Source: Alteromonas sp. CI.11.F.A3 (GTDB lineage: Bacteria > Pseudomonadota > Gammaproteobacteria > Enterobacterales > Alteromonadaceae). From it: 64,000 nt of DNA. Under the pieces are notes generated by a model that was not told the origin of the DNA, ran no database searches, and saw only the letters and a program-made list of their open reading frames with translations. Position 1 is the stretch's first letter. Every line of letters starts with the position of its first letter. The DNA lies in the NCBI RefSeq assembly GCF_032925565.1, contig NZ_CP136708.1, forward strand, positions 868,001-932,000. The letters are read 5' to 3'. Both the position numbers and the translations under genes were made by a program. Shown here piece after piece: positions 25,625 through 37,200 of the stretch.

Positions 25625-26470
25625 CTAAACCATGTCATCAGGGTTAGCATAGTCAGGGACTATTCCCAGTAAACCCCAACTCGCTTTTGCATCAATCACT
25701 TTGCCCGTAGGTGGTAATTCTGACTCACTAAACGTGGGTGCAGGTATCCCTTTTTTGTTTGCAGCTTGGGTATAGTATTCGCCTCTTTTCGGGTGCTGTA
25801 AACTACATAAGTGGTATAAGTTTGTGCTGTCAGCATTGCTACTGACACCCTCGCTACTAGTGGACAAAATAAGTGTCTTTAACGCGGCAACCACATCATG
25901 AATATGCACTAGGTTAATTCTCTTATTGCCCGCATTCAGGCTTCTTCCACTTAACGACTTCACAGGGTGACGATCTGGCCCTGTTAACCCCGCAAGGCGA
26001 ACTATCTTAACGTCTGCCTTGGCATTCGTTTTTAAATCTAATAGGTGCTGTTCTATCGCGACATGGGCTTTTGCCGATGCGGTCTCAGGCTGGGTGCTGG
26101 CGTGCTCATTTAACTCTTCATTCCTAATGTCGCCGTATACCGAGGTGGTGCTGATAAAGATTATACGGGCTACGTTGGCCGCCACTGCCTTATCAATAAG
26201 GGCAAGCATGCTATTGGTAAAACCATCTAACTGGGTATTACGACGACCAGGTGGAATGTTTAGCACCAGTGTTGCGTCGCTAAGTTCATTACACAGCGCG
26301 GAGGTGTCGTTCCCCAGACTAAATACCAAACCTTGAATGTGTGTATTGCTAATTTGCTGCGCCTTTTCTTCGCTTCGCGTGGTGGCAATAATGGAGTGGG
26401 TAGCTGACATGGCTTCGCCTAGGTAGCGACCAAGCCAACCGTAACCGCATATAACGAGCTTATTATTCAT
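25625..26470 (-). CDS. YeeZ-like NAD(P)-dependent epimerase/dehydratase family protein
   Basis: 281 residues. The N-terminal motif CGYGWLGRYLGEAM is a GxGxxG Rossmann loop of the YeeZ kind. VLNIPPGRR, FISTTSVYGD (serine and tyrosine of an SDR-like centre) and INLVHIHDVV are typical of extended SDRs in this group. YeeZ homologues have no confirmed substrate. It is cytoplasmic and monocistronic. A GAAGAC site lies before the ATG. Confidence 0.82.
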   Translation of the reverse strand: MNNKLVICGYGWLGRYLGEAMSATHSIIATTRSEEKAQQISNTHIQGLVFSLGNDTSALCNELSDATLVLNIPPGRRNTQLDGFTNSMLALIDKAVAANVARIIFISTTSVYGDIRNEELNEHASTQPETASAKAHVAIEQHLLDLKTNAKADVKIVRLAGLTGPDRHPVKSLSGRSLNAGNKRINLVHIHDVVAALKTLILSTSSEGVSSNADSTNLYHLCSLQHPKRGEYYTQAANKKGIPAPTFSESELPPTGKVIDAKASWGLLGIVPDYANPDDMV

Positions 26471-26619
26471 AACGTCTTCTTAGATGAAAATGGGGCGTGA
26501 AAGTAAAGTATCAAAAATACGCGGTAAGGCGCAAAACGGATTGATTCAGGGGGCCAAAGCGAGGGCCCATAATTGATAAGGGTGAAAAGCGATTACAATG
26601 ACATAAGTTAAAAAACAAA

Positions 26620-26643
26620 AACGCTAGCTGGAAAGCTAGCGTT
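26620..26643 (-). terminator. Terminator after yggN-like gene
   Basis: AACGCTAGCT/AGCTAGCGTT hairpin with a 4-base loop; on the minus strand it is followed by a T-rich run, correct for the minus-strand gene upstream of it. Confidence 0.85.
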
Positions 26644-26707
26644 GTAAGGCTATTAAACGTAATTGGAATGCAGTGGAGGGGGAGTCACTACACCAATAAA
26701 AACACAC

Positions 26708-27508
26708 TTACATTTTCATTTCGCCACTGCGCATATCGATTAAGTCTAAGCCTCCTAACCCAGGAATGCTGGCTTGCATCTTGTTTTCTGCATAATTAGC
26801 TTCTTGCAATACTTCACACAGGGCATCGCCTTTTTCTTCAAGTGCTGCGGCTTGAGTTTCAACACGGTGTTCAATAGATTCACCAAAGCGTTCCATTTTT
26901 GCCTCGAACTCTTCCATGTCGCCACCGTTCCATAGCATTTGCGTACCAACAGCAATCAGAATGCGGCCAATTGATTCACTAACTAGCGACTCGAACTGCG
27001 CTTCAAATTCGTCTTCCCAGCTTTCGTCGAAAAAGCCTGGTTCGTCAAATTTAGTCGTATCCACTTTGATATTGCCGTTGTCGTCGTAAAAAGACGTTGC
27101 TAACTTTTCGTTAAGCGAAGTGAACATGGTATCGAAGTCTTCAGTAAGCTCATTATCGCCGCCAAGCAGTTCACCGAATACTTCAGAAACGGCAACACTC
27201 GCAATCTCTAACCCTTCACTTGCGATATTAAGGGTCATGGGGATGGCAGTATCGATACGGTCGTAATAGGTATTTACCCATTGTTGTTGCTCGTTGTTCA
27301 GCGTAACACTTTCGCCGTTAATGACTAAATGGTAAGTGTCATCAATCGACATGGTAGAACCATTTTGCATGTCGACAGTAATGAGGCCCTGGTGGTATTT
27401 AAGGTGGCCATCCAATTCGATGTCGCAGCTAGTCTCAAAAGCAAACGCTGGCACGCTAAGTAAAGATGTAGTTACTAAGGCGAGTGGAAGAAATTGTTTG
27501 ATTTTCAT
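26708..27508 (-). CDS. yggN: YggN-family (DUF2884) exported protein
   Basis: 266 residues with a signal peptide (FLPLALVTTSLLSVPAFA). The mature N-terminus FETSCDIELDGHLKYHQGLITVDM and a long acidic, helical middle (ESWEDEFEAQFESLVSE...MEEFEAKMERFGESIEHRVE) match the YggN family of periplasmic proteins. Function is unknown. Cys28 near the start and a later Cys in GDALCEVL may form a disulfide. It has its own terminator and is monocistronic. Confidence 0.82.
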   Translation of the reverse strand: MKIKQFLPLALVTTSLLSVPAFAFETSCDIELDGHLKYHQGLITVDMQNGSTMSIDDTYHLVINGESVTLNNEQQQWVNTYYDRIDTAIPMTLNIASEGLEIASVAVSEVFGELLGGDNELTEDFDTMFTSLNEKLATSFYDDNGNIKVDTTKFDEPGFFDESWEDEFEAQFESLVSESIGRILIAVGTQMLWNGGDMEEFEAKMERFGESIEHRVETQAAALEEKGDALCEVLQEANYAENKMQASIPGLGGLDLIDMRSGEMKM

Positions 27509-27855
27509 TTTTTGAAATCCTATTAACCATGATGCTGTCTGGAAGACTGTCTAGCGTGATGAGCTCACGCGGTTTTAATAACCTGTTATAACAACCCCAG
27601 TTGTATCCTCAGTGGTGCAACCTCAGTGCCATTTTAATAAATTATCATTATTTCAATGGCTTAAGGTTTTTTGGGTAAGCTGTGGGATTCGCTATTTACC
27701 AAAAATTAGTAATTAGCTTAACTATTTGGCATTTTTGACTAAGATCAAAGAGGTAAGAAAAAGAGCGCATTACTCGTATTTAATGCTTTTTGAGGCATGT
27801 TCATCTAGATTGATTTCATGCATAATAACGCCAGAAAAATTAAAGGGTTTAGAGA
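27509..27855. other. Intergenic region between divergent yggN and small membrane protein
   Basis: 347 bases, AT-rich. It contains a CCTCAGTG direct repeat (near 27608 and 27625) and a CATAAT hexamer near 27822 that may be the -10 of the small gene. No ORF or strong dyad was found. Confidence 0.4.
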
Positions 27856-28047
27856 ATGACTGATTGGATTAACGCAATTGTATTTGGTGTTGCGCTAATT
27901 GCCTTCACTCTGGGGCTTAGCAGCATCGTAATGGGTTTCATGACAGCTGAAACTGGCGCAAAAGGCATGCAAGAAAAAATCGAGTATGGTTTCTTTGGTG
28001 TGTCTGGGTTAGTGGTTTGCTTGCTAATGGGTTATGCATTGGCTTAA
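27856..28047 (+). CDS. Small two-TM membrane protein, unknown
   Basis: 63 residues and very hydrophobic: TM1 about 6-28 (AIVFGVALIAFTLGLSSIVMGF), a short polar loop (TAETGAKGMQEKIEYG), TM2 about 46-62. The loop's Gly-rich pattern is regular and the gene ends in a strong terminator, so I judge it real. AAAGGG lies upstream of the ATG. I do not recognise the family; it does not resemble a toxin with a known signature. Confidence 0.7.
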   Translation: MTDWINAIVFGVALIAFTLGLSSIVMGFMTAETGAKGMQEKIEYGFFGVSGLVVCLLMGYALA

Positions 28048-28061
28048 GAAATGATTTCCAT

Positions 28062-28090
28062 AAAAAAACCGGCTTAGGCCGGTTTTTTTT
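28062..28090 (+). terminator. Rho-independent terminator
   Basis: AAAAAAACCGGC, TTAG, GCCGGTTTTTTT: strong stem and T run, just after the 63-residue protein; it can also serve the convergent MscS gene. Confidence 0.92.
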
Positions 28091-28129
28091 ATGTCTAGCG
28101 TTTAAATTTCGTTGCTACACGCGCAAGCG

Positions 28130-29416
28130 CTAGTCTTGTTCACTCTGGCTTATGTCCATGGCACTGGATAAGTAACCTAAGTGACCGTCACGCTGATAAG
28201 CAATTAGGTCAAATAATGACAGCATGGCCATCACATGGTCAAATATATCCGCTTGAACCTTTTCGTACTTCACCCAATCTTTTTCAATACTAAAACAATA
28301 CAGTTCCAGTGGCAGTCCAATCTCATTCGGGGGAAGCTGGCGTACCATCAAGGTCATTTCTTGGTTCACACTGGGGTGTTTTCGCAAATAAGACTCTAAA
28401 TACGCTCTGAATGTACCTATGTTAGTTAATTTGCGGCTATTTAATAAATCAGACTCATCAATAGAATAGTCTCTGTGGTAAGCGCGCAGTTCATTAGTCT
28501 TCTTCTCGATATACTCACTGATGTAGCGAATTTTAGAGAAACGTTCTAGCATTTCGTTGTCACATAATTTTATAGAATGAACATCGATATACACAGAGCG
28601 CTTTATTCTGCGGCCACCAGACTCTTGCATGCCTCGCCAGTTTTTAACTGCCTCGGTAGTCAAATTATAGGTTGGCAAGGTTGAAATGGTTTTATCCCAA
28701 TTTTGTACTTTTACGTTGGTTAAACCTATCTCTTTAATTTCACCGTCTACTTCGTATTTCTGCATGGTGATCCAATCGCCGGTATTAAACATGCGGTTAG
28801 CAGCAATTTGAATACCAGCCACAAAGCCTAATATGGTATCGCGGAAAATCAATAGCAGCACCGCGGCAATGGCAGTTAGCCCAGATACCAGCAGAAGCGG
28901 GCTTTTATCAACAATTAACGAGATGCTAAACAGTATGGTAAGAATGGCAAAGCCAAGCTTAGTAACTTGAATAAAACCCGTGATAGGCGCACGTTTAGAT
29001 AATGCAGACGCGTTGTAAACATCTTCCACCGTACTTAAAATGGCATAAATACCCAGCAGTCCGCTGTACAGCATGTACAACAAAGCACTTTTTATTAATA
29101 AGCCATACAACACAGAGGCTTCTTCAATAAGCACTGGGGTAGCAAGGAATATAAACAGGGCAGGGAATAAATGCATAAGACGGCGGAAGAAGCCATGCTC
29201 TTGCAGTGCGTTATCCCAAATGTTGGTGGTTTTGGTAACCCATCTCGCTATTTGAGGGCGCACAACCAATCTTGCAAAGATATAAATGACTATCGCTATC
29301 GTTAAAATGGCGCCTAACGCTAGCGCATTATATAGCGGGTCGTGCATGGTTAGTGACGGAAAAAAATCCTTCACTAAATGCGTGAAACTATCACGTACAG
29401 TCGAACTTACTTCCAC
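28130..29416 (-). CDS. ybdG: MscS-family mechanosensitive channel (YbdG/MscM type)
   Basis: 428 residues from a GTG start with GGAG seven bases upstream. Five or so TM helices precede the pore and beta domain: FRDTILGFVAGIQIAANRMFNTGDWITM is the YbdG version of the conserved MscS TM3-beta junction. The long C-terminal cytosolic part matches YbdG (415 residues in E. coli). It is a miniconductance channel that opens on hypo-osmotic shock at the inner membrane. It follows an acyltransferase gene by 2 bases and shares its operon. Confidence 0.88.
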   Translation of the reverse strand: MEVSSTVRDSFTHLVKDFFPSLTMHDPLYNALALGAILTIAIVIYIFARLVVRPQIARWVTKTTNIWDNALQEHGFFRRLMHLFPALFIFLATPVLIEEASVLYGLLIKSALLYMLYSGLLGIYAILSTVEDVYNASALSKRAPITGFIQVTKLGFAILTILFSISLIVDKSPLLLVSGLTAIAAVLLLIFRDTILGFVAGIQIAANRMFNTGDWITMQKYEVDGEIKEIGLTNVKVQNWDKTISTLPTYNLTTEAVKNWRGMQESGGRRIKRSVYIDVHSIKLCDNEMLERFSKIRYISEYIEKKTNELRAYHRDYSIDESDLLNSRKLTNIGTFRAYLESYLRKHPSVNQEMTLMVRQLPPNEIGLPLELYCFSIEKDWVKYEKVQADIFDHVMAMLSLFDLIAYQRDGHLGYLSSAMDISQSEQD

Positions 29417-29418
29417 AA

Positions 29419-30312
29419 TTACGACTCCAAAAGACGTTTGATACGGCTATCTTTATTTTTCCACATGGCATTGAGCCAATCTTGAAACGTGGTGCGAAAC
29501 TCCGGTTCACTCAATGCAGAGTGTTGCTGAAGTGCAGGCACTGGCATCACATTAACATCGATTATAATTTTGGTCATGGTGCCACTTAGCATCGCCATCA
29601 TGGGGTGGCGTTTGTTTTCTGGATACAGTAAAGAAATATCGAGTACATTCGTAAACAATTCCCCCATTGCCGCTAAAGTGAAAGAAACGCCACCCGCTTT
29701 AGGGGGAAGTAAGGTTTCATAAGGGCTGCGCTTCTGGTGATGTTTTTGTGTGGTAAATCGGGTGCCTTCAACAAAGTTAATGACAGTGGTGGGCACCGTG
29801 CGAAATTTTTCACAAGATGCTCTTGTCGTTTCTAAATCTTTGCCTTTTTTCTCAGGGTACTTTTCTAAATAGGCCTTGGTGTATCTGTGCATAAAAGGCA
29901 TATCTAACGCCCAAGCACCTAACCCTACAAAAGGAAGCCAAATTAATTCCTTTTTAAGGAAGAATTTAGGGGCTGGTATGCGGTGAGTAGCAAATTCAAT
30001 AAGCAACACAATATCAAGGTAGCTAAGATGGTTGGCGATAATTAAATACCATCTTTCTTTTGATAATTCACCATGCACTGCACACTCAATGTTTACGCTA
30101 TTAAAAAGGCGAATGAGTAATACACTAACGCGGCCGAAACTAAACAAGCAAGCGTGCATCACGCTATTCCACGCCTCGGTAATTTTACCTGATGGTAGTA
30201 TTAGTTTAACTACGCCGAACAAGATGATCAGTCCTCCCCACAGCGCTAAGTTAGCTATTTGAAGCACGGTGTGGATCACGAAAATTACAGGGGACAACAA
30301 GGTACGGATCAT
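29419..30312 (-). CDS. PlsC-like membrane acyltransferase (YihG-like), copy 2
   Basis: 297 residues. An N-terminal TM segment, the HX4D motif NHLSYLD (catalytic His/Asp), and FVEGTRFT (EGT substrate motif) define the PlsC family. FPFFLKKELIW-type context and the AGGVSFTLAAMG stretch match the YihG branch. It transfers acyl groups to a glycerol-phosphate-like acceptor in the inner membrane. Its start overlaps the stop of the upstream, closely related acyltransferase by 4 bases (ATGA), and the MscS gene follows by 2. Acceptor specificity unknown. Confidence 0.88.
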   Translation of the reverse strand: MIRTLLSPVIFVIHTVLQIANLALWGGLIILFGVVKLILPSGKITEAWNSVMHACLFSFGRVSVLLIRLFNSVNIECAVHGELSKERWYLIIANHLSYLDIVLLIEFATHRIPAPKFFLKKELIWLPFVGLGAWALDMPFMHRYTKAYLEKYPEKKGKDLETTRASCEKFRTVPTTVINFVEGTRFTTQKHHQKRSPYETLLPPKAGGVSFTLAAMGELFTNVLDISLLYPENKRHPMMAMLSGTMTKIIIDVNVMPVPALQQHSALSEPEFRTTFQDWLNAMWKNKDSRIKRLLES

Positions 30313-31223
30313 AGTGGCTTCTGAGTTGCGTTAATCGATTCTAATTGGTCGTTTTTATCTTGCCAGCGGCTATTTAACCAACGCTGAAATTGGCTTCTTA
30401 CTTTCGGGTCGTCAAAGTAATTATCGTTGAAGTAGCCATTTTCGGTAATATCCGTGATAGGAGTCACCTTGATACTGACCCGTATATCACGTACTTTGCC
30501 ACTGACGAAATCCCAAAATGAGGGAACGCCACCAGGGTAATCAATCGTTACGTCAATTAGCTTGTGTAATTGTGAGCCCATGGCAGAAAGTACAAAGGCC
30601 ACGCCGCCGGCTTTAGGCTTAAGCAGGTGGCTAAACGGAGAGTTCTGTCGATCATGTTTTTCTTGGGTAAAACGAGTGCCTTCCACAAAATTCATGATAC
30701 TTACCGGCTTGGTTTGAAACTTTTCACATGCTTTACGGGTAGTTTCCATATCCTTCCCTTTTAAATGCGGGTTCTTTGCTAAGAAAGATTTTGAGTATCG
30801 ACGCATAAAGGGAAAATCGAGAGCCCACCAGGCTAGGCCTAAAATAGGTACGTAAATAAGCTCTTTTTTAAGGAAGAACTTTAAAAACGGGATTTTTCGG
30901 TTGAATACGCGTTGTAAAACCAAGATATCGACCCAAGATTGATGATTAGCAATAACTAAGTACCAGTCATTGCGGGTAAGTTGGTCAAGGCCTGTAACAT
31001 CCCATTTTGTTCTACTACTTACTCGCTGATTAAGATTATTAATCGTAATCCATGCGGTTGCGCAAGCGTCCAAAATGTACGATATGAATCGTCTCCATGG
31101 CGCAAGCGGAATAAGTTTGAAAAAAGACAAAATAATGATGGGCGTTGCCCATAAAACCGTATTTAAAAAATAAAAAATTACTGAAATGGTGCCAACCAGA
31201 TGATGCATTAGGCTTCTTATCAT
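30309..31223 (-). CDS. PlsC-like membrane acyltransferase (YihG-like), copy 1
   Basis: 304 residues with the same build as its downstream neighbour: N-terminal TM, NHQSWVD (HX4D), FFLKKELIYVPILGLAWWALDFPFMRRYSK, NFVEGTRFTQEKH and AGGVAFVLSAMGSQ. The two are clear paralogues from a tandem duplication, now diverged. YihG-type acyltransferases act on lysophospholipids. It has its own AGGTAAG ribosome site and heads the operon (acyltransferase, acyltransferase, MscS). Confidence 0.88.
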   Translation of the reverse strand: MIRSLMHHLVGTISVIFYFLNTVLWATPIIILSFFKLIPLAPWRRFISYILDACATAWITINNLNQRVSSRTKWDVTGLDQLTRNDWYLVIANHQSWVDILVLQRVFNRKIPFLKFFLKKELIYVPILGLAWWALDFPFMRRYSKSFLAKNPHLKGKDMETTRKACEKFQTKPVSIMNFVEGTRFTQEKHDRQNSPFSHLLKPKAGGVAFVLSAMGSQLHKLIDVTIDYPGGVPSFWDFVSGKVRDIRVSIKVTPITDITENGYFNDNYFDDPKVRSQFQRWLNSRWQDKNDQLESINATQKPL

Positions 31224-31347
31224 CGTACTTACCTCAAAAATTAGGCACTTAGTGTAAACGAACTTGATTTAAAATCCGATAGACCCTTTACTGTTTGCTA
31301 CAGCAAAGTGGTTATTTTTCTAAATTTATTAGTGTACAGGAGCCATT

Positions 31348-32190
31348 ATGGAGCTTATTAGTGAAAATCGTGCGTTTGGCGGTAGGCATTTACGCTACAG
31401 TCACGATGCAAAGAGCACCAATTGCAGTATGACATTTGCAATCTATCTACCACCGTTTGCCTCCGCTGAAAAGCCAGTGCCGGTTTTATATTGGCTGTCA
31501 GGGCTTACCTGTAACGACCAAAACTTTATGCAAAAAGCGGGAGCGATGAAGTTAGCCGCAGAGCTTGGAATGGCAATTGTTGCGCCAGATACAAGCCCTC
31601 GGGGTGAAGGTGTTCCTGATGACGAAAACGGTGCTTATGATTTTGGGCTAGGTGCTGGTTTTTATGTTGATGCAACACAAGCACCATGGAAAGAGCACTA
31701 TCAGATGTATAGCTATGTCACTGAAGAGCTGCCTAGCGTTGTAGAGGAACACTTCCCCGTGACAAAAGAGCGTGCAATTAGCGGTCATTCAATGGGCGGT
31801 CATGGCGCGCTTGTCGCTGGTTTACGTAATCCGAATCGTTATGTCTCTGTTTCTGCGTTTAGCCCAGTGGCGAACCCTTCTGATTGTCCATGGGGTCAAA
31901 AAGCATTGGGCCAGTATTTAGGTGATGATAAATCAGCATGGGATGAATACGATGCTGCAAAGATTATTGCGAGTAACAATCATGCCATTCCATTATTAGT
32001 TGAGCAGGGAAATAGTGATGAGTTTTTGTCAGAACAATTAAAACCACTAGCGCTCGTGCAAGCGGCTCAGCAAACAGATACGCAATTAACGCTGAACATG
32101 CATGAAGGCTACGATCATAGTTACTTCTTTATAGCGTCGTTTATTGAAGATCACTTAGAATTTCACGCTGGGCATTTAGGCCTAATTTAA
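31348..32190 (+). CDS. fghA: S-formylglutathione hydrolase
   Basis: 280 residues, typical length. The catalytic triad is Ser148 (GHSMGGHGAL), Asp224 (GNSDEFL) and His257 (YDHSYFFI), all in the family context. It hydrolyses S-formylglutathione to formate and glutathione, the second step of formaldehyde detoxification. The usual partner, glutathione-dependent formaldehyde dehydrogenase (adhC/frmA), is not adjacent, so regulation may be separate. An AGGAG-like site precedes the ATG. Cytoplasmic, monocistronic. Confidence 0.95.
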   Translation: MELISENRAFGGRHLRYSHDAKSTNCSMTFAIYLPPFASAEKPVPVLYWLSGLTCNDQNFMQKAGAMKLAAELGMAIVAPDTSPRGEGVPDDENGAYDFGLGAGFYVDATQAPWKEHYQMYSYVTEELPSVVEEHFPVTKERAISGHSMGGHGALVAGLRNPNRYVSVSAFSPVANPSDCPWGQKALGQYLGDDKSAWDEYDAAKIIASNNHAIPLLVEQGNSDEFLSEQLKPLALVQAAQQTDTQLTLNMHEGYDHSYFFIASFIEDHLEFHAGHLGLI

Positions 32191-32265
32191 GCGCCAGCGT
32201 CCCGTATAAGTGCGTTAGTTAGCTGCGTGACTAAGCGTTATATCGCCGCTCTCTAATGCGGTTTT

Positions 32266-34371
32266 CTAGCGCAGCTTTTCTACGAAGTCCCCAATCGACA
32301 TTGGTTTGTCAAAGTAGTAACCCTGGGCATAAGTACATGCGTTGTCTACCAAAAATGCTTGTTGATCTTGCGTTTCAACACCCTCGGCAATAATGCTAAT
32401 ATTTAAATTTTTGGCCAAGCCTAAAATAGCTTGAATAATAGCTTGATCGTCGGTGTTCGCTTCTAAATCGCTCACAAAAGAACGGTCTATCTTTAGTTCA
32501 TCAATAGGAAGCTTTTTAAGGTAAACCAAAGAGCTAAAACCGGTTCCAAAATCATCAATTGATATGGTAATACCCATAGCTCTAAGTTCGTTCAGCAGCA
32601 CAGACACAGTATCCAAACTGTCAATAAACACACTCTCGGTGAGCTCTATCGATAAATGCCTTGGGTCAATAGCGCGGCGCTTCAATGATGACTGTATTTG
32701 GTGAAGCAGCACAAGGTCGGTGACCTGTCGGCCAGAGATATTAATCGCTAGGCGAATGTCTAAATTAGCTTCAGTAAGCTTATCAATAGCATTACACGCT
32801 TCTTCTACTAACCATTCACCAAATGGGAATATCAGTTCAGTACGTTCAGCTATCGGAATAAAAACATCCGGTGGAATGTAGCTTCCGTCTTCTGTTTTCC
32901 AGCGCGCTAATGCTTCGCACTTAACAATTTTACCGGTTTCCAAATCAACGATAGGTTGTAAGAAAAGCGCTAATTGATTGTTTTCAATGGCGGTGCGAAG
33001 TTTGCTTTCCAACTCAGACATACTCTGATGCTGGCGTTGCAGCATTTCACTGTATTCAAGAATAACGTTTTTACCTTGAAACTTCGCAATCTGGAGGGCG
33101 ATATCCGCATGACGCAATAATATATTCCCTTGCTCTCCGTGTTGGGGATAACTCGCAATGCCAATGTTGATCCCAAGGTTCGATTCAGCGCCATGAAGCG
33201 AGGTATAGGTAGTCACCAGCTTCTTCTTCATATCCTGCGCATAATCTAATGAGCTAACGCCACTGAAAGTATCGGTGCGTTTTACAATGGAAAACTCGTT
33301 GCTCCCTATTCTGGCGATAAACCCACTATTGCCAACAAAACCTTGCAATCTTGATGCAAAAGACTTGAGTATTTCATCACCTGAATGGTAACCAAGTTTT
33401 TCGTTAATCTTCTTAAACTCTCGTATATCTATAATAAATAGAGCAAATTTAACGTCTTCTTGAACCAACTTCTGAACATAGCTATTGAAAAAATTACGGT
33501 TGGCAATTTTAGTCAACGAGTCCATGCCCGTAGCAGAGAGTACGCTTTCTTCTTTATTTCGAATGTGACTGATATCGGTAAGAAGATATACCCAATGGGT
33601 GAGTTCATTATCGTGAATAACAGGATGAATGGTGACCTGTAACCATACTTCATAATTTTGCGTGGGTTGCCAATAGAGCTCACCTTGCCATGCTGAACGC
33701 TTTTCGATGAGCGTTGGGAGGAAAGTGTCTGGCACGCTCACGTCTTCAAGTAAATGTTCAAGCCTATTGGCACTGTCATTGGAACGGCTGCAAGAAAGGA
33801 GTTGCCTAGCGGACTTATTATCTAACACCGTTTCACGGTCTTTATCTAAAATAACCACCCCAGTTTCTAAGTGGTGGATAGCTTGTTTTATGGGGGGAAC
33901 CAGCTTTTCGTAATTTTTGTTTTTAAGCAGTGTTTTATCTAGACGTTGACGGATGTATTCATGCTGACCAACAATTTCGTGATGGCTTAAAAGGAGCTCT
34001 CTGGCAGCTTGTAGTGTTTTTTGTTTTTCTTCGTATTGGGTTTCTACATTCTTTATGACTAAGAAGTGTTCGCCTTTGCCACTATTAATAGCAAGCGCTT
34101 CTAGATGGATCGATTCATTCTCTGTCTCTTCAGTCCAAAACCCTGAGGATAGCGTGAAAACGGTGTCGTTTTGCCAAATATCATTGGCATCTGTCATAAA
34201 GTCGTCTAGAAAAATGGAGGAGAAATTGTCTGGATTAACCTTGTTATCATCATCTAGGGTGGCAATCTTATGTAGCCACGAAACATCAGGCGTGAGGCAT
34301 TGAAGGCTCGTTGTGCTTTTAAAGATAGCGCAGTCTGTTATTCCTAGCGCATTAAGAAGGTGTATATCCAT
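32266..34371 (-). CDS. PAS-GGDEF(degenerate)-EAL protein, last gene of GTPase/OmpA operon
   Basis: 701 residues, no TM. The N-terminal input (about 1-110, ending FLVIKNVETQYEEKQKTLQ) is followed by a coiled-coil link (110-155), a PAS-like domain (about 157-270), GGDEF and EAL. The GGDEF signature is GSNEF at 356-360, lacking the catalytic Gly-Gly-Asp, so cyclase activity should be lost. The EAL domain is complete (EAL 486-488, NISG, ELTES, DDFGTGFSS, KIDRSF, AEGVE), predicting a c-di-GMP phosphodiesterase, perhaps controlled by the dead GGDEF. It starts 9 bases after the GTPase gene, with GGAG seven bases upstream. As the end of this operon, it is probably the output controlled by the GTPase/OmpA proteins; this is inference. 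Confidence 0.9.
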   Translation of the reverse strand: MDIHLLNALGITDCAIFKSTTSLQCLTPDVSWLHKIATLDDDNKVNPDNFSSIFLDDFMTDANDIWQNDTVFTLSSGFWTEETENESIHLEALAINSGKGEHFLVIKNVETQYEEKQKTLQAARELLLSHHEIVGQHEYIRQRLDKTLLKNKNYEKLVPPIKQAIHHLETGVVILDKDRETVLDNKSARQLLSCSRSNDSANRLEHLLEDVSVPDTFLPTLIEKRSAWQGELYWQPTQNYEVWLQVTIHPVIHDNELTHWVYLLTDISHIRNKEESVLSATGMDSLTKIANRNFFNSYVQKLVQEDVKFALFIIDIREFKKINEKLGYHSGDEILKSFASRLQGFVGNSGFIARIGSNEFSIVKRTDTFSGVSSLDYAQDMKKKLVTTYTSLHGAESNLGINIGIASYPQHGEQGNILLRHADIALQIAKFQGKNVILEYSEMLQRQHQSMSELESKLRTAIENNQLALFLQPIVDLETGKIVKCEALARWKTEDGSYIPPDVFIPIAERTELIFPFGEWLVEEACNAIDKLTEANLDIRLAINISGRQVTDLVLLHQIQSSLKRRAIDPRHLSIELTESVFIDSLDTVSVLLNELRAMGITISIDDFGTGFSSLVYLKKLPIDELKIDRSFVSDLEANTDDQAIIQAILGLAKNLNISIIAEGVETQDQQAFLVDNACTYAQGYYFDKPMSIGDFVEKLR

Positions 34372-34380
34372 ACGTAGCTC

Positions 34381-34866
34381 CTACCAAAACGCAATTGTAC
34401 TAAAGAGGTTTTCGACATTCTCTCCGGTCTTTGCACTGGTTTTTGTTAGTGATTCAAAATTTTTTGCATAGGAATCAAGTTCTTCTTCACTCCAGTGCCA
34501 GCTTGAAGGCAGGTCGGTTTTATTGACCACGAAAAAAGCCGGAATATCTGGGTAATGCTCCTTTGCCATCTCGAGTATTTCAATACCTTCTAAAAGTGAT
34601 TGAGAACGAGTCTGATCAACGACAATGATATATGCACTAGCACCACGCAAGTAGCGAGGGTTGAACCCACAGTATCTGTCGATACCTTCTAGGTCCCACA
34701 GCAATAACTGAACGCCGCGGCCCTCTTTATTGACTTGTTTTTTATCTATTTTTACGCCAATAGTAGTTTTGTATTTTTCAGAGAAAATACTTTCAACAAA
34801 CTGTTTTACTAAGCTTGTTTTACCAACGCCAGTAGGCCCTAAAATACATACTTTTTTCTGTATCAA
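34381..34866 (-). CDS. Ras/Rab-like small GTPase
   Basis: 161 residues from a TTG start with AAAGGAAG placed seven bases upstream. All five G boxes are present: P-loop GPTGVGKTS (10-18), switch-I Thr34/Thr35 in KTTIG, DLEG (58-61), NKTD (115-118) and TSAK (143-146). The order and the WD.xG context are those of Rab/Ras/Arf-like GTPases. The residue matching Ras Gln61 is Ile62, which usually means slow intrinsic GTPase and need for a partner. There is no C-terminal cysteine for lipidation. Its neighbours, a roadblock-like/OmpA protein and a coiled-coil protein in the same operon, suggest a cytosolic switch reporting to or from the envelope. Role unknown; fold confident. Confidence 0.88.
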   Translation of the reverse strand: MIQKKVCILGPTGVGKTSLVKQFVESIFSEKYKTTIGVKIDKKQVNKEGRGVQLLLWDLEGIDRYCGFNPRYLRGASAYIIVVDQTRSQSLLEGIEILEMAKEHYPDIPAFFVVNKTDLPSSWHWSEEELDSYAKNFESLTKTSAKTGENVENLFSTIAFW

Positions 34867-34881
34867 TTCTAAGCTTCCTTT

Positions 34882-36645
34882 CTACTGTGAGTCAGATATC
34901 AAAACGTTTAACATAACCGACCGTCCCATTGATGGCTGCTGTAATGGTAATTCTCCTAAACTCACTGGTATGAGCATATCACTATCTACCCCGAGTGATA
35001 TCATTGAATCAAAGACATTCTGTGCTCTACGTTGACTAAGCTCGCGGTTATTAACACTAGAGCCCGTATTATCACTGGCGCCCATAATAATGATGCTGAC
35101 ATCGGTTTTCGTGGCCTGTGCTAGCGTTTGCAACGCCTTAATATCATTAGCTAACAATGCTAGTTTAGTTAACTGTACTTCAGAAATGGTTTCTTGGTTA
35201 GTAGCAAAAAGTACATTTTGCGAAGATATCTTGTTTGCCAGCTTAGTCAGCCTTGCCTTTTTAAGCGCCAAAGTTTCTGTTTGCTCTGAAGGGATAATAG
35301 TGATTTTACTGGTATCCAGAAATACTAAGTTTATACCTGGAATAGCGCGAATTCGTTGAAGTAGCTCGTTGGAATGGGCGGTGAACAGTGAGCCCGAAAT
35401 TTCCCACTTTCCTTCGTCATTTTGCTCAAGGTTAAGAGATTCACCTTCACGTAACGACGCATTATTTACGACGGCTGAAAGCTTTTGCACAATCACTTCG
35501 GTTTTTAATGAGAGGTAAGGTTCCTCAATAATAGTTAGTTTATTGAGATTGATATCATTGTCATTGAGCCAGTTTGAAACGCTCATTGCAACGGGGTCAC
35601 GAAACACTTTCGCATGAACCTTTCCTTTCGATATATAAGTATCGGTAACTAACAAACCAGGAGGGGGCGTAAGTTCGTGTAGTTCGCTTTTAAGAATGCT
35701 TAAAGATAATCGTGCAGCACAGAGAAAGCCTAACCCGCAGAGCAAAAGAAGGATAACAATACCGCCGAACATGCGCTTTGACTTGTTTTTTTCACTATCT
35801 TTTCTTTCACTTAAAAGGCAGTCAGCCAACAAGGTTTCAGAGCCGACAAAGGGCGCATTATCGCCATCATAGTTAATGAGTGGTTGCTGATAAAACTGGT
35901 GAAACTCTTCTAATGCCTGCTGCAACTTGCTTTTTACTTGGGCCGGAACACTTCCTGTCACTGCGGCAACTAATATGGCTTGAGGACCTACTGCGATTAA
36001 TAACGTGAAATCCTCTGTTTTTATTTCGTCTAATTCATTATCAGTTTGATTGCTTGTGACCCCAAACGCATCTGCGACAAAGTCATTAATGGCCACTAAC
36101 ATTGAAGAAATAAGATCGGCGTCTTTTTCCTTATCTGGATCGGATGAAATACTGTGCAGTAATGTACCCGTTTCTCGATGGATGACGAGAAGCTGCTGAA
36201 CTTGATATTGGTATATTTGAGACGCCACATACTCAGAGTATTTAATGCCTGACTGCCATGCTTTGAATCGCCAAGAGATACTTTTAGGGCTTAGGCTATT
36301 CTCTATAAGTGTGTTGGTACGCTCAACAAATTCCAACAAAAAGGAAGACACCGCTTTTCGTACCAAGGTGCCGACGAGTGGATACAAGGTCCCCACGATT
36401 TTTTCGCTATTAGCTTCTATTGAACGATGTAATGATTTCTCGACAAGAGGAACCAAGACTTTATTTACCGAACCGTCTTTAGCTTCTCGTTCAAATAACG
36501 CTTCAGAAACTACTTTACTGACAAATCCTTTAGGATCTTTATCAAACTTTTCTTGGATGTATTTTTCATCGCGACCGATTAATAACTCCCTGATCCTATC
36601 GAGAGAGTTGTCATCTTGCTCAGATGATGGAGCGTTATCCGTCAT
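34882..36645 (-). CDS. Single-TM protein with roadblock/longin-like cytosolic region and periplasmic OmpA domain
   Basis: 587 residues: a cytosolic part (1-290), one TM helix (about 293-311) and a periplasmic part (312-587). Residues 148-255 (QVQQLLVIHRETGTLLHS...LLIAVGPQAILVAAV) have the strand/helix rhythm of the roadblock/longin fold, the usual partner of small GTPases; this is an inference by eye. Residues 345-455 look BON-like. The C-terminus (475-585) is OmpA-type, with Asp525 and Arg540 at the diaminopimelate-binding positions, so it should grip peptidoglycan. I recall OmpA proteins with this kind of N-terminus in other bacteria, uncharacterised. An N-terminal motif, L..IRELLIG (15-24), recurs in the upstream coiled-coil protein. 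No signal peptide. It starts 3 bases after that gene. Confidence 0.85.
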   Translation of the reverse strand: MTDNAPSSEQDDNSLDRIRELLIGRDEKYIQEKFDKDPKGFVSKVVSEALFEREAKDGSVNKVLVPLVEKSLHRSIEANSEKIVGTLYPLVGTLVRKAVSSFLLEFVERTNTLIENSLSPKSISWRFKAWQSGIKYSEYVASQIYQYQVQQLLVIHRETGTLLHSISSDPDKEKDADLISSMLVAINDFVADAFGVTSNQTDNELDEIKTEDFTLLIAVGPQAILVAAVTGSVPAQVKSKLQQALEEFHQFYQQPLINYDGDNAPFVGSETLLADCLLSERKDSEKNKSKRMFGGIVILLLLCGLGFLCAARLSLSILKSELHELTPPPGLLVTDTYISKGKVHAKVFRDPVAMSVSNWLNDNDINLNKLTIIEEPYLSLKTEVIVQKLSAVVNNASLREGESLNLEQNDEGKWEISGSLFTAHSNELLQRIRAIPGINLVFLDTSKITIIPSEQTETLALKKARLTKLANKISSQNVLFATNQETISEVQLTKLALLANDIKALQTLAQATKTDVSIIIMGASDNTGSSVNNRELSQRRAQNVFDSMISLGVDSDMLIPVSLGELPLQQPSMGRSVMLNVLISDSQ

Positions 36646-36648
36646 TTA

Positions 36649-37200
36649 TTAGTTGTCGGTCGTTAAGTTAGTTGCCATAGTCGATAGCAAGTTGGCCAAC
36701 GTTTTTCTGTCAGTTTTGTTTTCTGAAAGTTCACTGGTCACTTGTTGTAGTTTTTCAAGAAGCTCTTGATGACGCTTGCTGAACACGCTATCCAATGATT
36801 CCAGCTCTTTTACCACATGAGCTTCCAGTGCATTGTTGTCGTTTTTAGCTGTGGTTTCAGCTATCTCTAACTCACTTTGCAATTTATCTGTCGTACTTTG
36901 TAGCTGTTCTTGCACATTGCTGTGATTGTTGTTTGCACTGACAAGCTGAGTAGACAATTCACTGATTTGTGTATCAATCAATTTTCGGATTTCAGTAAAT
37001 TGTTCATCTAAATGTTGATTTAGCTTTGAGAAATTATCATTAACTCGTGACTCAAGGGCCGATAAATCCGAGCGGAAATCACGATTGGTTTGGCCAAAGA
37101 GTATTTCCTTTAATTGAGATAACTCGTCAGCGGCTTGGGGCATGCTTTCAGCGCTATTAGCCGGTTGAGCTTGCTGATCCTTTGGCTTTTTATCTGCCAT
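36649..37200 (-). CDS. Coiled-coil protein, first gene of GTPase/OmpA operon
   Basis: 183 residues, no TM or signal. After a disordered Ala/Gln/Pro-rich start (1-25) comes LSQLKEILFGQTNRDF (27-42), which resembles the N-terminal motif of the OmpA/roadblock protein. Then a long heptad-patterned coiled coil runs to about 165 (for example LNQHLDEQFTEIRKLIDTQ, LEKLQQVTSELSENK). Probably a scaffold or tether. GGAG lies about ten bases before the ATG. It heads a four-gene operon with 3-15 base gaps. Confidence 0.8.
   Translation of the reverse strand: MADKKPKDQQAQPANSAESMPQAADELSQLKEILFGQTNRDFRSDLSALESRVNDNFSKLNQHLDEQFTEIRKLIDTQISELSTQLVSANNNHSNVQEQLQSTTDKLQSELEIAETTAKNDNNALEAHVVKELESLDSVFSKRHQELLEKLQQVTSELSENKTDRKTLANLLSTMATNLTTDN

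What the first reader, a model, noticed from the sequence alone, without database searches (positions are those of the whole stretch)
32266..37200. Trans-envelope small-GTPase operon: coiled coil, roadblock-like/OmpA, Ras-like GTPase, EAL phosphodiesterase
Four tightly spaced minus-strand genes (gaps 3, 15 and 9 bases) join parts rarely seen together. A Ras/Rab-type GTPase has Ile62 where Ras has Gln61. A one-TM protein has a cytosolic part that looks roadblock/longin-like (the usual GTPase partner fold) and a periplasmic OmpA domain with Asp525 and Arg540 at the peptidoglycan-binding positions. The others are a coiled-coil scaffold and a PAS/dead-GGDEF/intact-EAL protein. The natural reading is a cell-wall-anchored sensor that works through a GTPase to change c-di-GMP. 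I recall OmpA proteins with a similar N-terminus elsewhere, but no described mechanism.
Basis: partly seen in the sequence, partly recalled or inferred. Interest (0 to 1): 0.85.

Follow-up and report, generated by a model that had tools for sequence, protein, structure and literature searches.

The report
Cell-wall-tethered bacterial Ras-like GTPase relay
Four neighbouring genes look like a signalling relay in which a protein anchored to the cell wall controls a Ras-like switch, which in turn controls an enzyme that destroys a bacterial messenger molecule; the gene set was outlined in 2014 without experiments, and one part resembles a domain that controls Rab switches in our own cells.

The parts
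36649..37200 (-). Coiled-coil protein, 183 aa, no transmembrane segment found; carries L27-SQLKEILFG, a motif also seen in the OmpA protein's N-terminus
34882..36645 (-). Longin/OmpA protein, 587 aa, predicted single-pass inner-membrane protein
36241..36645 (-). Residues 1-135: conserved helical N-terminal region (LDRIRELLIG motif; R19, R96, R126 invariant in 105 sequences); mostly low pLDDT
35806..36213 (-). Residues 145-280: longin-like domain (b-b-a-b-b-b-a-a in the model)
   Evidence: weak, not significant sequence hints
35716..35778 (-). Residues 290-310: transmembrane helix
35383..35655 (-). Residues 331-421: periplasmic alpha/beta part, possibly BON-like (the model also matches Rv0899, a BON-OmpA protein; the BON label is recalled)
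34891..35280 (-). Residues 456-585: OmpA peptidoglycan-binding domain with Asp525 and Arg540
34381..34866 (-). Group 1 Rup small GTPase, 161 aa, TTG start; switch I F28-SEKY32-K33-TT-IG
34681..34683 (-). Codon of Ile62, the position of catalytic Gln61 in Ras
32266..34371 (-). Output enzyme, 701 aa: docking domain - PAS - degenerate GGDEF - EAL phosphodiesterase
33922..34371 (-). Residues 1-150: docking domain of the type shared by EAL and HD-GYP outputs; PAS-like in the model, with a long helix 110-150
34009..34011 (-). Codon of Gln121; Gln in 152 of 153 outputs in a joint alignment
33571..33885 (-). Residues 163-267: PAS domain
33067..33525 (-). Residues 283-435: GGDEF domain with GSNEF motif
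32302..33003 (-). Residues 457-690: EAL domain, catalytic residues present

Best explanation
This is a Group 1 Rup G-protein relay of Alteromonas. The OmpA protein holds peptidoglycan, crosses the inner membrane once and presents a longin-like domain in the cytosol. That domain binds the Rab-like GTPase and sets its nucleotide state in response to the envelope, most likely as an exchange factor. The GTP-bound GTPase binds the docking domain of the output enzyme and switches (or recruits) its EAL phosphodiesterase, changing c-di-GMP. Gln121 in the helix after the docking domain may stand in for the Gln that the GTPase lacks, so that the output also resets the switch. The coiled-coil protein holds the complex together. 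Shown by computation: gene set, its conservation, EAL residues, predicted fold, shared docking domains and the Gln. Inferred: every binding event, the GEF role, the Gln role and the direction of regulation.
Against: No complex was modelled. Longin rests on one predicted structure whose central helix has pLDDT 49-62; sequence tests for longin or roadblock are not significant, and unrelated families match more members or better (Uteroglobin in 7 of 75; ILEI best 4.2e-4). The catalytic Lys of tri-longin activation is at the matching place in only 21 of 158 GTPases, the window's among them, so that exact mechanism is not general. A single longin is not the heterodimer that such activators use (a homodimer would be assumed). 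The two docking-domain types are only weakly alike (5.5, 3.5, 0.5 and 56%; controls at most 0.75%), so a common docking mechanism for all four outputs is not shown, and placing their Gln in one column presumes that they are related. The Alteromonas genome G025 keeps the three upstream genes but has no docking-domain match. Loci were chosen by GTPase similarity and include many near relatives.
Confidence: 0.45

Rival explanations
1. Spatial model: the GTPase is a positioning factor like MglA. The peptidoglycan-held longin protein marks a site on the envelope and GTP-bound GTPase recruits the phosphodiesterase there; activity per molecule does not change.
For: Peptidoglycan-binding anchor and coiled-coil partner; no TM segment in 11 of 12 outputs scanned; very different enzymes share a docking domain, which fits recruitment as well as allostery.
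Against: The docking domain is PAS-like in the model and leads into a long helix, a layout usually used for allosteric signalling (recall).
Confidence: 0.3
2. The longin domain is a GAP (as in NPRL2 or folliculin complexes, recalled) or a mere effector platform, not an exchange factor; exchange is spontaneous.
For: Longin and roadblock platforms act as GEFs mainly and as GAPs occasionally (PMC10933270, passages); MglB does both (PMC11016934, start of abstract in a search listing). The tri-longin Lys is missing in 137 of 158 GTPases.
Against: No arginine lies among the invariant or nearly invariant columns of the longin region. R19, R96 and R126 outside it are invariant and could serve as a finger, so this is not strong.
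Confidence: 0.3
3. The cytosolic domain is a true roadblock (MglB-like) domain and the set is a variant MglA/MglB system.
For: Among natural proteins the lowest E-value in the PDB sequence comparison is a Roadblock/LC7 protein, 0.16 and 0.23, not significant; the model also has a helix (136-144) before strand 1, where roadblock has one, and that stretch is well conserved.
Against: Profile comparison with 62 roadblock stretches gives probabilities 0.9-1.9%; no Robl_LC7 match in the window's genome and none in the 25 of 52 families shown for 75 homologues; the C-terminal helix that marks longin (PMC10933270, passages) is present at 264-274 with pLDDT 83-86; longins are among the 50 rows shown and roadblock is not, which does not exclude it.
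Confidence: 0.2
4. The four genes are merely co-transcribed and do not work together.
For: A recombination edge lies at the end of the OmpA gene: against the same species the window is 97.6% identical downstream and 48-74% upstream.
Against: Conservation of the set in 129 of 133 loci drawn from the genus up to the phylum; one longin match in each of four genomes with bare pairs.
Confidence: 0.04

Closest known systems
Group 1 Rup GTPase neighbourhood (Wuichet and Sogaard-Andersen 2014, PMC4316618)
   Same: Single-domain Ras-like GTPase without the G3 Gln, coiled-coil gene, DUF-TM-OmpA gene, output gene (DGC/PDE or histidine kinase) whose N-terminus holds an invariant Gln; proposed there as a signal system, with the missing Gln perhaps supplied in trans (sections 12 and 18 read; passages).
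   Different: In what I read, that paper gives no fold for the DUF and says 'typically' DGC/PDE or histidine kinase for the output; its supplementary tables were not seen. HD-GYP and class III cyclase outputs, two docking-domain types, bare pairs with a distant longin gene and the longin reading are added here.
Tri-longin Rab activators (Mon1-Ccz1, Fuzzy-Inturned, HPS1-HPS4)
   Same: A longin fold (predicted here) beside a Rab-like GTPase; Phe and Tyr anchors of switch I conserved.
   Different: One longin instead of three, no second longin subunit seen, catalytic Lys in only 21 of 158, joined to a TM and a peptidoglycan-binding domain.
MglA/MglB and actinobacterial conservons
   Same: Bacterial small GTPase with an alpha/beta regulator of the roadblock/longin class and, in conservons, a signalling enzyme.
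   Different: GTPase fits Rup, not MglA; no Robl_LC7 match in the genome; the envelope anchor is in the regulator itself.
Pal/MotB/YfiB-type OmpA domains
   Different: Cytosolic longin-like half; YfiB acts on c-di-GMP by another route (recall).

Membership tests
Group 1 Rup system | Small single-domain Ras-like GTPase (150-240 aa) | tested here: met
   161 aa; Ras 9.7e-30
Group 1 Rup system | No catalytic Gln in G3 | tested here: met
   Ile62; the eight commonest residues, none Gln, make 151 of 158; one DIEGQ seen
Group 1 Rup system | Neighbouring genes: coiled coil, DUF-TM-OmpA, output | tested here: met
Group 1 Rup system | Invariant Gln in the output's N-terminal region | tested here: met
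   Gln121; 152 of 153. That it is the same Gln as in their logo was not seen (figures not held)
Group 1 Rup system | Not coupled to MglB | tested here: met
   no PF03259 match in the window's genome
Group 1 Rup system | Tree placement with reference Group 1 Rup proteins | not tested
   their reference proteins were not fetched
Longin domain superfamily | b-b-a-b-b-b-a-a fold with extra C-terminal helix | tested here: met
   in a predicted model only; central helix of low confidence
Longin domain superfamily | Significant sequence match | tested here: inconclusive
   weak matches to Fuz_longin_1 in 3 of 75, Intu_longin_3 in 1 and Sybindin in 1, among 52 such families of which 25 were shown, some of the unrelated ones stronger; no PDB sequence match below 0.05
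Tri-longin RabGEF | Three longin domains in each of two subunits | tested here: not met
   one longin-like domain in the 587-aa protein
Tri-longin RabGEF | Substrate GTPase with catalytic basic residue after switch I Tyr | tested here: not met
   Lys in 21 of 158, window included; Leu in 114
Roadblock/LC7 (MglB) | Sequence match to Robl_LC7 | tested here: not met
Roadblock/LC7 (MglB) | Roadblock fold by structure comparison | tested here: inconclusive
   not among the 50 rows shown
c-di-GMP phosphodiesterase (EAL) | Catalytic residues present | tested here: met
Peptidoglycan-binding OmpA domain | Asp and Arg at binding positions | tested here: met
   Asp525, Arg540

The most novel reading that the evidence does not exclude
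A bacterial Rab-longin regulatory pair: a Rab-like GTPase and a true longin-domain regulator encoded side by side in bacteria, the same kind of partnership that eukaryotes use in TRAPP, Mon1-Ccz1 and Fuzzy-Inturned. If homologous, the longin did not have to arise in eukaryotes from roadblock, and the GTPase-plus-regulator pair could have a bacterial source. With class III cyclase outputs in some lineages, it would also be a bacterial 'G protein to adenylate cyclase' relay.
Probability: 0.35. Interest if true: 0.9.

Novelty: new member of a known kind. Interest (0 to 1): 0.66.

Why it matters
[quoted passage not shown] Naming a likely fold for the regulator, showing that the output is interchangeable behind two docking-domain types, and finding genomes with the parts split give a short list of direct tests of how a bacterial Ras-like switch links the cell wall to second messengers. 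If the longin is real and homologous, it bears on where the eukaryotic Rab machinery came from.

Tried and rejected
Roadblock as the fold: profile-profile comparison of the domain (29 and up to 105 rows) with 62 roadblock stretches gave 0.9-1.9%; kept only as a rival. Roadblock is not among the 50 rows shown, which does not exclude it.

Sequence proof of longin: PDB profile search and Pfam scan of 75 homologues gave nothing convincing; two of the three lowest E-values are de novo designed proteins, and Uteroglobin matches 7 of 75 members and ILEI reaches 4.2e-4.

One docking domain for all outputs: I first took it so from the alignment. Profile comparison shows two types, EAL with HD-GYP (99.8%) and cyclase with kinase (99.7%); across types 5.5, 3.5, 0.5 and 56%, against controls of at most 0.75%. 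A distant relation is likely but not shown.

Promoters and terminators: promoter-like sites are as many as in shuffles (12 against 12.1) and terminator-like sites nearly so (6 against 4.9), so nothing is claimed about transcription.

They are still in the counts, and L227 and L229 in the tree. Loci L111, L149, L264, L266, L268 and L270 were without a typed output by the automatic rule; on inspection L149 and L264 do have a downstream ORF read from an early start, L111 and L270 show no candidate directly downstream, L266 and L268 stay unclear. L234 also lacks upstream genes but its contig ends there, so it is not counted as a bare pair. In one search the profiles left out L130, L211 and L212 (tandem domains) and the dropped or cut outputs.

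Full report
WHAT IS THERE. Four minus-strand genes follow one another with gaps of 3, 15 and 9 bases: a 183-aa coiled-coil protein (36649-37200), a 587-aa OmpA protein (34882-36645), a 161-aa GTPase with a TTG start (34381-34866) and a 701-aa PAS/GGDEF/EAL protein (32266-34371). Pfam gives Ras 9.7e-30 for the GTPase, OmpA 1.5e-09, and PAS, GGDEF and EAL for the last. The nearest solved relatives of the GTPase by sequence are Rab6 proteins (4.9e-22). G3 reads DLEGI, so Ile62 stands where Ras has Gln61. The GGDEF motif is GSNEF; the EAL residues E486, N544, E576, D606, D607, K627, E663 and Q683 are invariant in 15 aligned sequences, window included. Names attached to close database proteins show that the window is from Alteromonas, and a named contig of the same length as that of the one same-species genome found is Alteromonas sp. 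MMG017.

IT IS NOT RARE, AND NOT NEW AS AN ARRANGEMENT. The GTPase has a relative in 26 of 59 genomes of the genus, 62 of 246 of the family, 33 of 369 of the class and 49 of 398 of the phylum at E 1e-12, and in 21 of 394 of the order at 1e-10 (the samples overlap and include the window's genome). I gathered 163 neighbourhoods. After dropping one duplicate and four distant loci, 158 remain, 133 with at least 4 kb upstream and 2.3 kb downstream; 129 of these have the longin/OmpA gene, 127 within 250 bp of the GTPase, and 129 have the coiled-coil gene. Many are near relatives, so these are not independent counts. Wuichet and Sogaard-Andersen (PMC4316618; sections 12 and 18 read, other passages seen, supplements not seen) described this set as the neighbourhood of Group 1 Rup GTPases: coiled coil, a domain of unknown function often followed by a membrane helix and OmpA, the GTPase without the G3 Gln, and typically a DGC/PDE or histidine kinase with an invariant Gln in its N-terminus, noted there as a possible Gln in trans. 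They state that no Rup member had been characterised. Ten searches of the open library, with capped lists, listed no later study of these GTPases; the words 'Rup GTPase' were in that paper alone. Most subscription papers and all bioRxiv preprints are outside the library.

THE OUTPUT IS INTERCHANGEABLE. Downstream ORFs were found in 157 of 163 loci; local profiles type 88 as EAL/GGDEF, 34 as class III cyclase, 18 as histidine kinase, 12 as HD-GYP, and 5 remain untyped or cut. Pfam on 30 chosen representatives agrees: 11 with HisKA and HATPase, 9 Guanylate_cyc, 9 HD-GYP-type HD, 1 EAL. The outputs begin with a docking domain (46 aligned), of two types: EAL and HD-GYP share one (profile comparison 99.8%, E 9.9e-30), cyclase and kinase share another (99.7%, E 5.2e-26). 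Across types the comparisons give 56% (HD-GYP with kinase, E 1.1e-4), 5.5%, 3.5% and 0.5%, controls at most 0.75%; so they may be distant relatives, not more. Three outputs (L130, L211, L212) carry both types one after the other (E 1.7e-21 or better for the cyclase-type profile and 1.1e-29 or better for the HD-GYP-type profile). In the window the domain is predicted as a PAS-like sheet, residues 14-108, leading into a helix 110-150 (this part was barely tested against known folds). Gln121 in that helix is Gln in 152 of 153 outputs in a joint alignment that presumes the two types to be related; the exception is an ORF of doubtful identity. On a tree of 101 GTPases, two distant ones included, the output type changes at least 6 times, against 43.6 in shuffles, so outputs were exchanged, though seldom. 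The window's docking domain has a single match in its own genome.

SPLIT SYSTEMS. Four loci (L114, L124, L215, L231) are bare GTPase-output pairs. Each of the four genomes has exactly one match to the longin domain, elsewhere. In three of them a second GTPase sits beside that longin gene, so one longin protein may serve two switches; in G704 the only GTPase found at E 1e-12 lies apart from the longin gene. This suggests that GTPase and output form the inner unit and the longin/OmpA protein acts on it from upstream. One Alteromonas genome (G025, L111) keeps the first three genes and has no match to the window's docking domain: the relay may be losing its output there, or the GTPase has another target.

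MECHANISM. Most likely: peptidoglycan state or strain is read by the OmpA half; the longin half alters the nucleotide state of the GTPase; GTP-bound GTPase engages the docking domain and changes the activity or place of the phosphodiesterase; Gln121 helps to end the signal. Two facts bear on the first step. The aromatic residues of switch I that tri-longin activators hold are kept (Phe28 157 of 158, Tyr32 158 of 158), but their catalytic Lys is present in only 21 of 158, the window included (mechanism from passages of PMC12383261). And position 12 of Ras, Gly there, is Phe, Ser, Thr or Ala in 156 of 158, so a classical Ras-GAP finger is unlikely (inference). The coiled-coil protein and the N-terminus of the OmpA protein share a motif of the form LxxLRxLLxG: a loose pattern matches the first 80 residues of 135 of 144 and 123 of 150, against 2.5 and 3.8 on average in shuffled sequences, which suggests a common partner.

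VERDICT. What is new and testable is the longin-like regulator, the four enzyme types behind two docking-domain types, and the split genomes.

Noticed in passing
window 34932 and upstream to about 44086: Against the one other genome of the same species found (L094), identity is 97.6% over 26375-34932 and falls to 48-74% in 300-base bins upstream, through OmpA, the coiled coil and into the glycosyltransferase genes, with a matching stretch (81%) again from 44086. A recombination edge lies at the 3' end of the OmpA gene, so the sensor half and a neighbouring surface-sugar locus may have been exchanged together.
   Followed up: partly
L130, L211, L212 output genes: Both docking-domain types in tandem within one output protein.
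   Followed up: partly
GTPase residue 62 (window 34681-34683): The residue at the Ras-61 place goes with the output type: Glu in all 12 HD-GYP and all 33 cyclase loci, Ile, Val or Asn in 74 of 88 EAL loci. Shared ancestry was not separated out.
   Followed up: partly
L150 / L247 (Ghiorsea sp. MAG contig) and similar loci: The output is a class III nucleotidyl cyclase, that is, a Ras-like GTPase gene directly before a cyclase gene, recalling Ras and adenylate cyclase in yeast.
   Followed up: partly
L213, L216, L218, L223 and others: Some longin proteins keep the TM helix but match no OmpA domain by my local profile, so peptidoglycan binding may not be universal in the system.
   Followed up: no
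L116: A second EAL-type ORF lies upstream of the operon in addition to the usual output.
   Followed up: no
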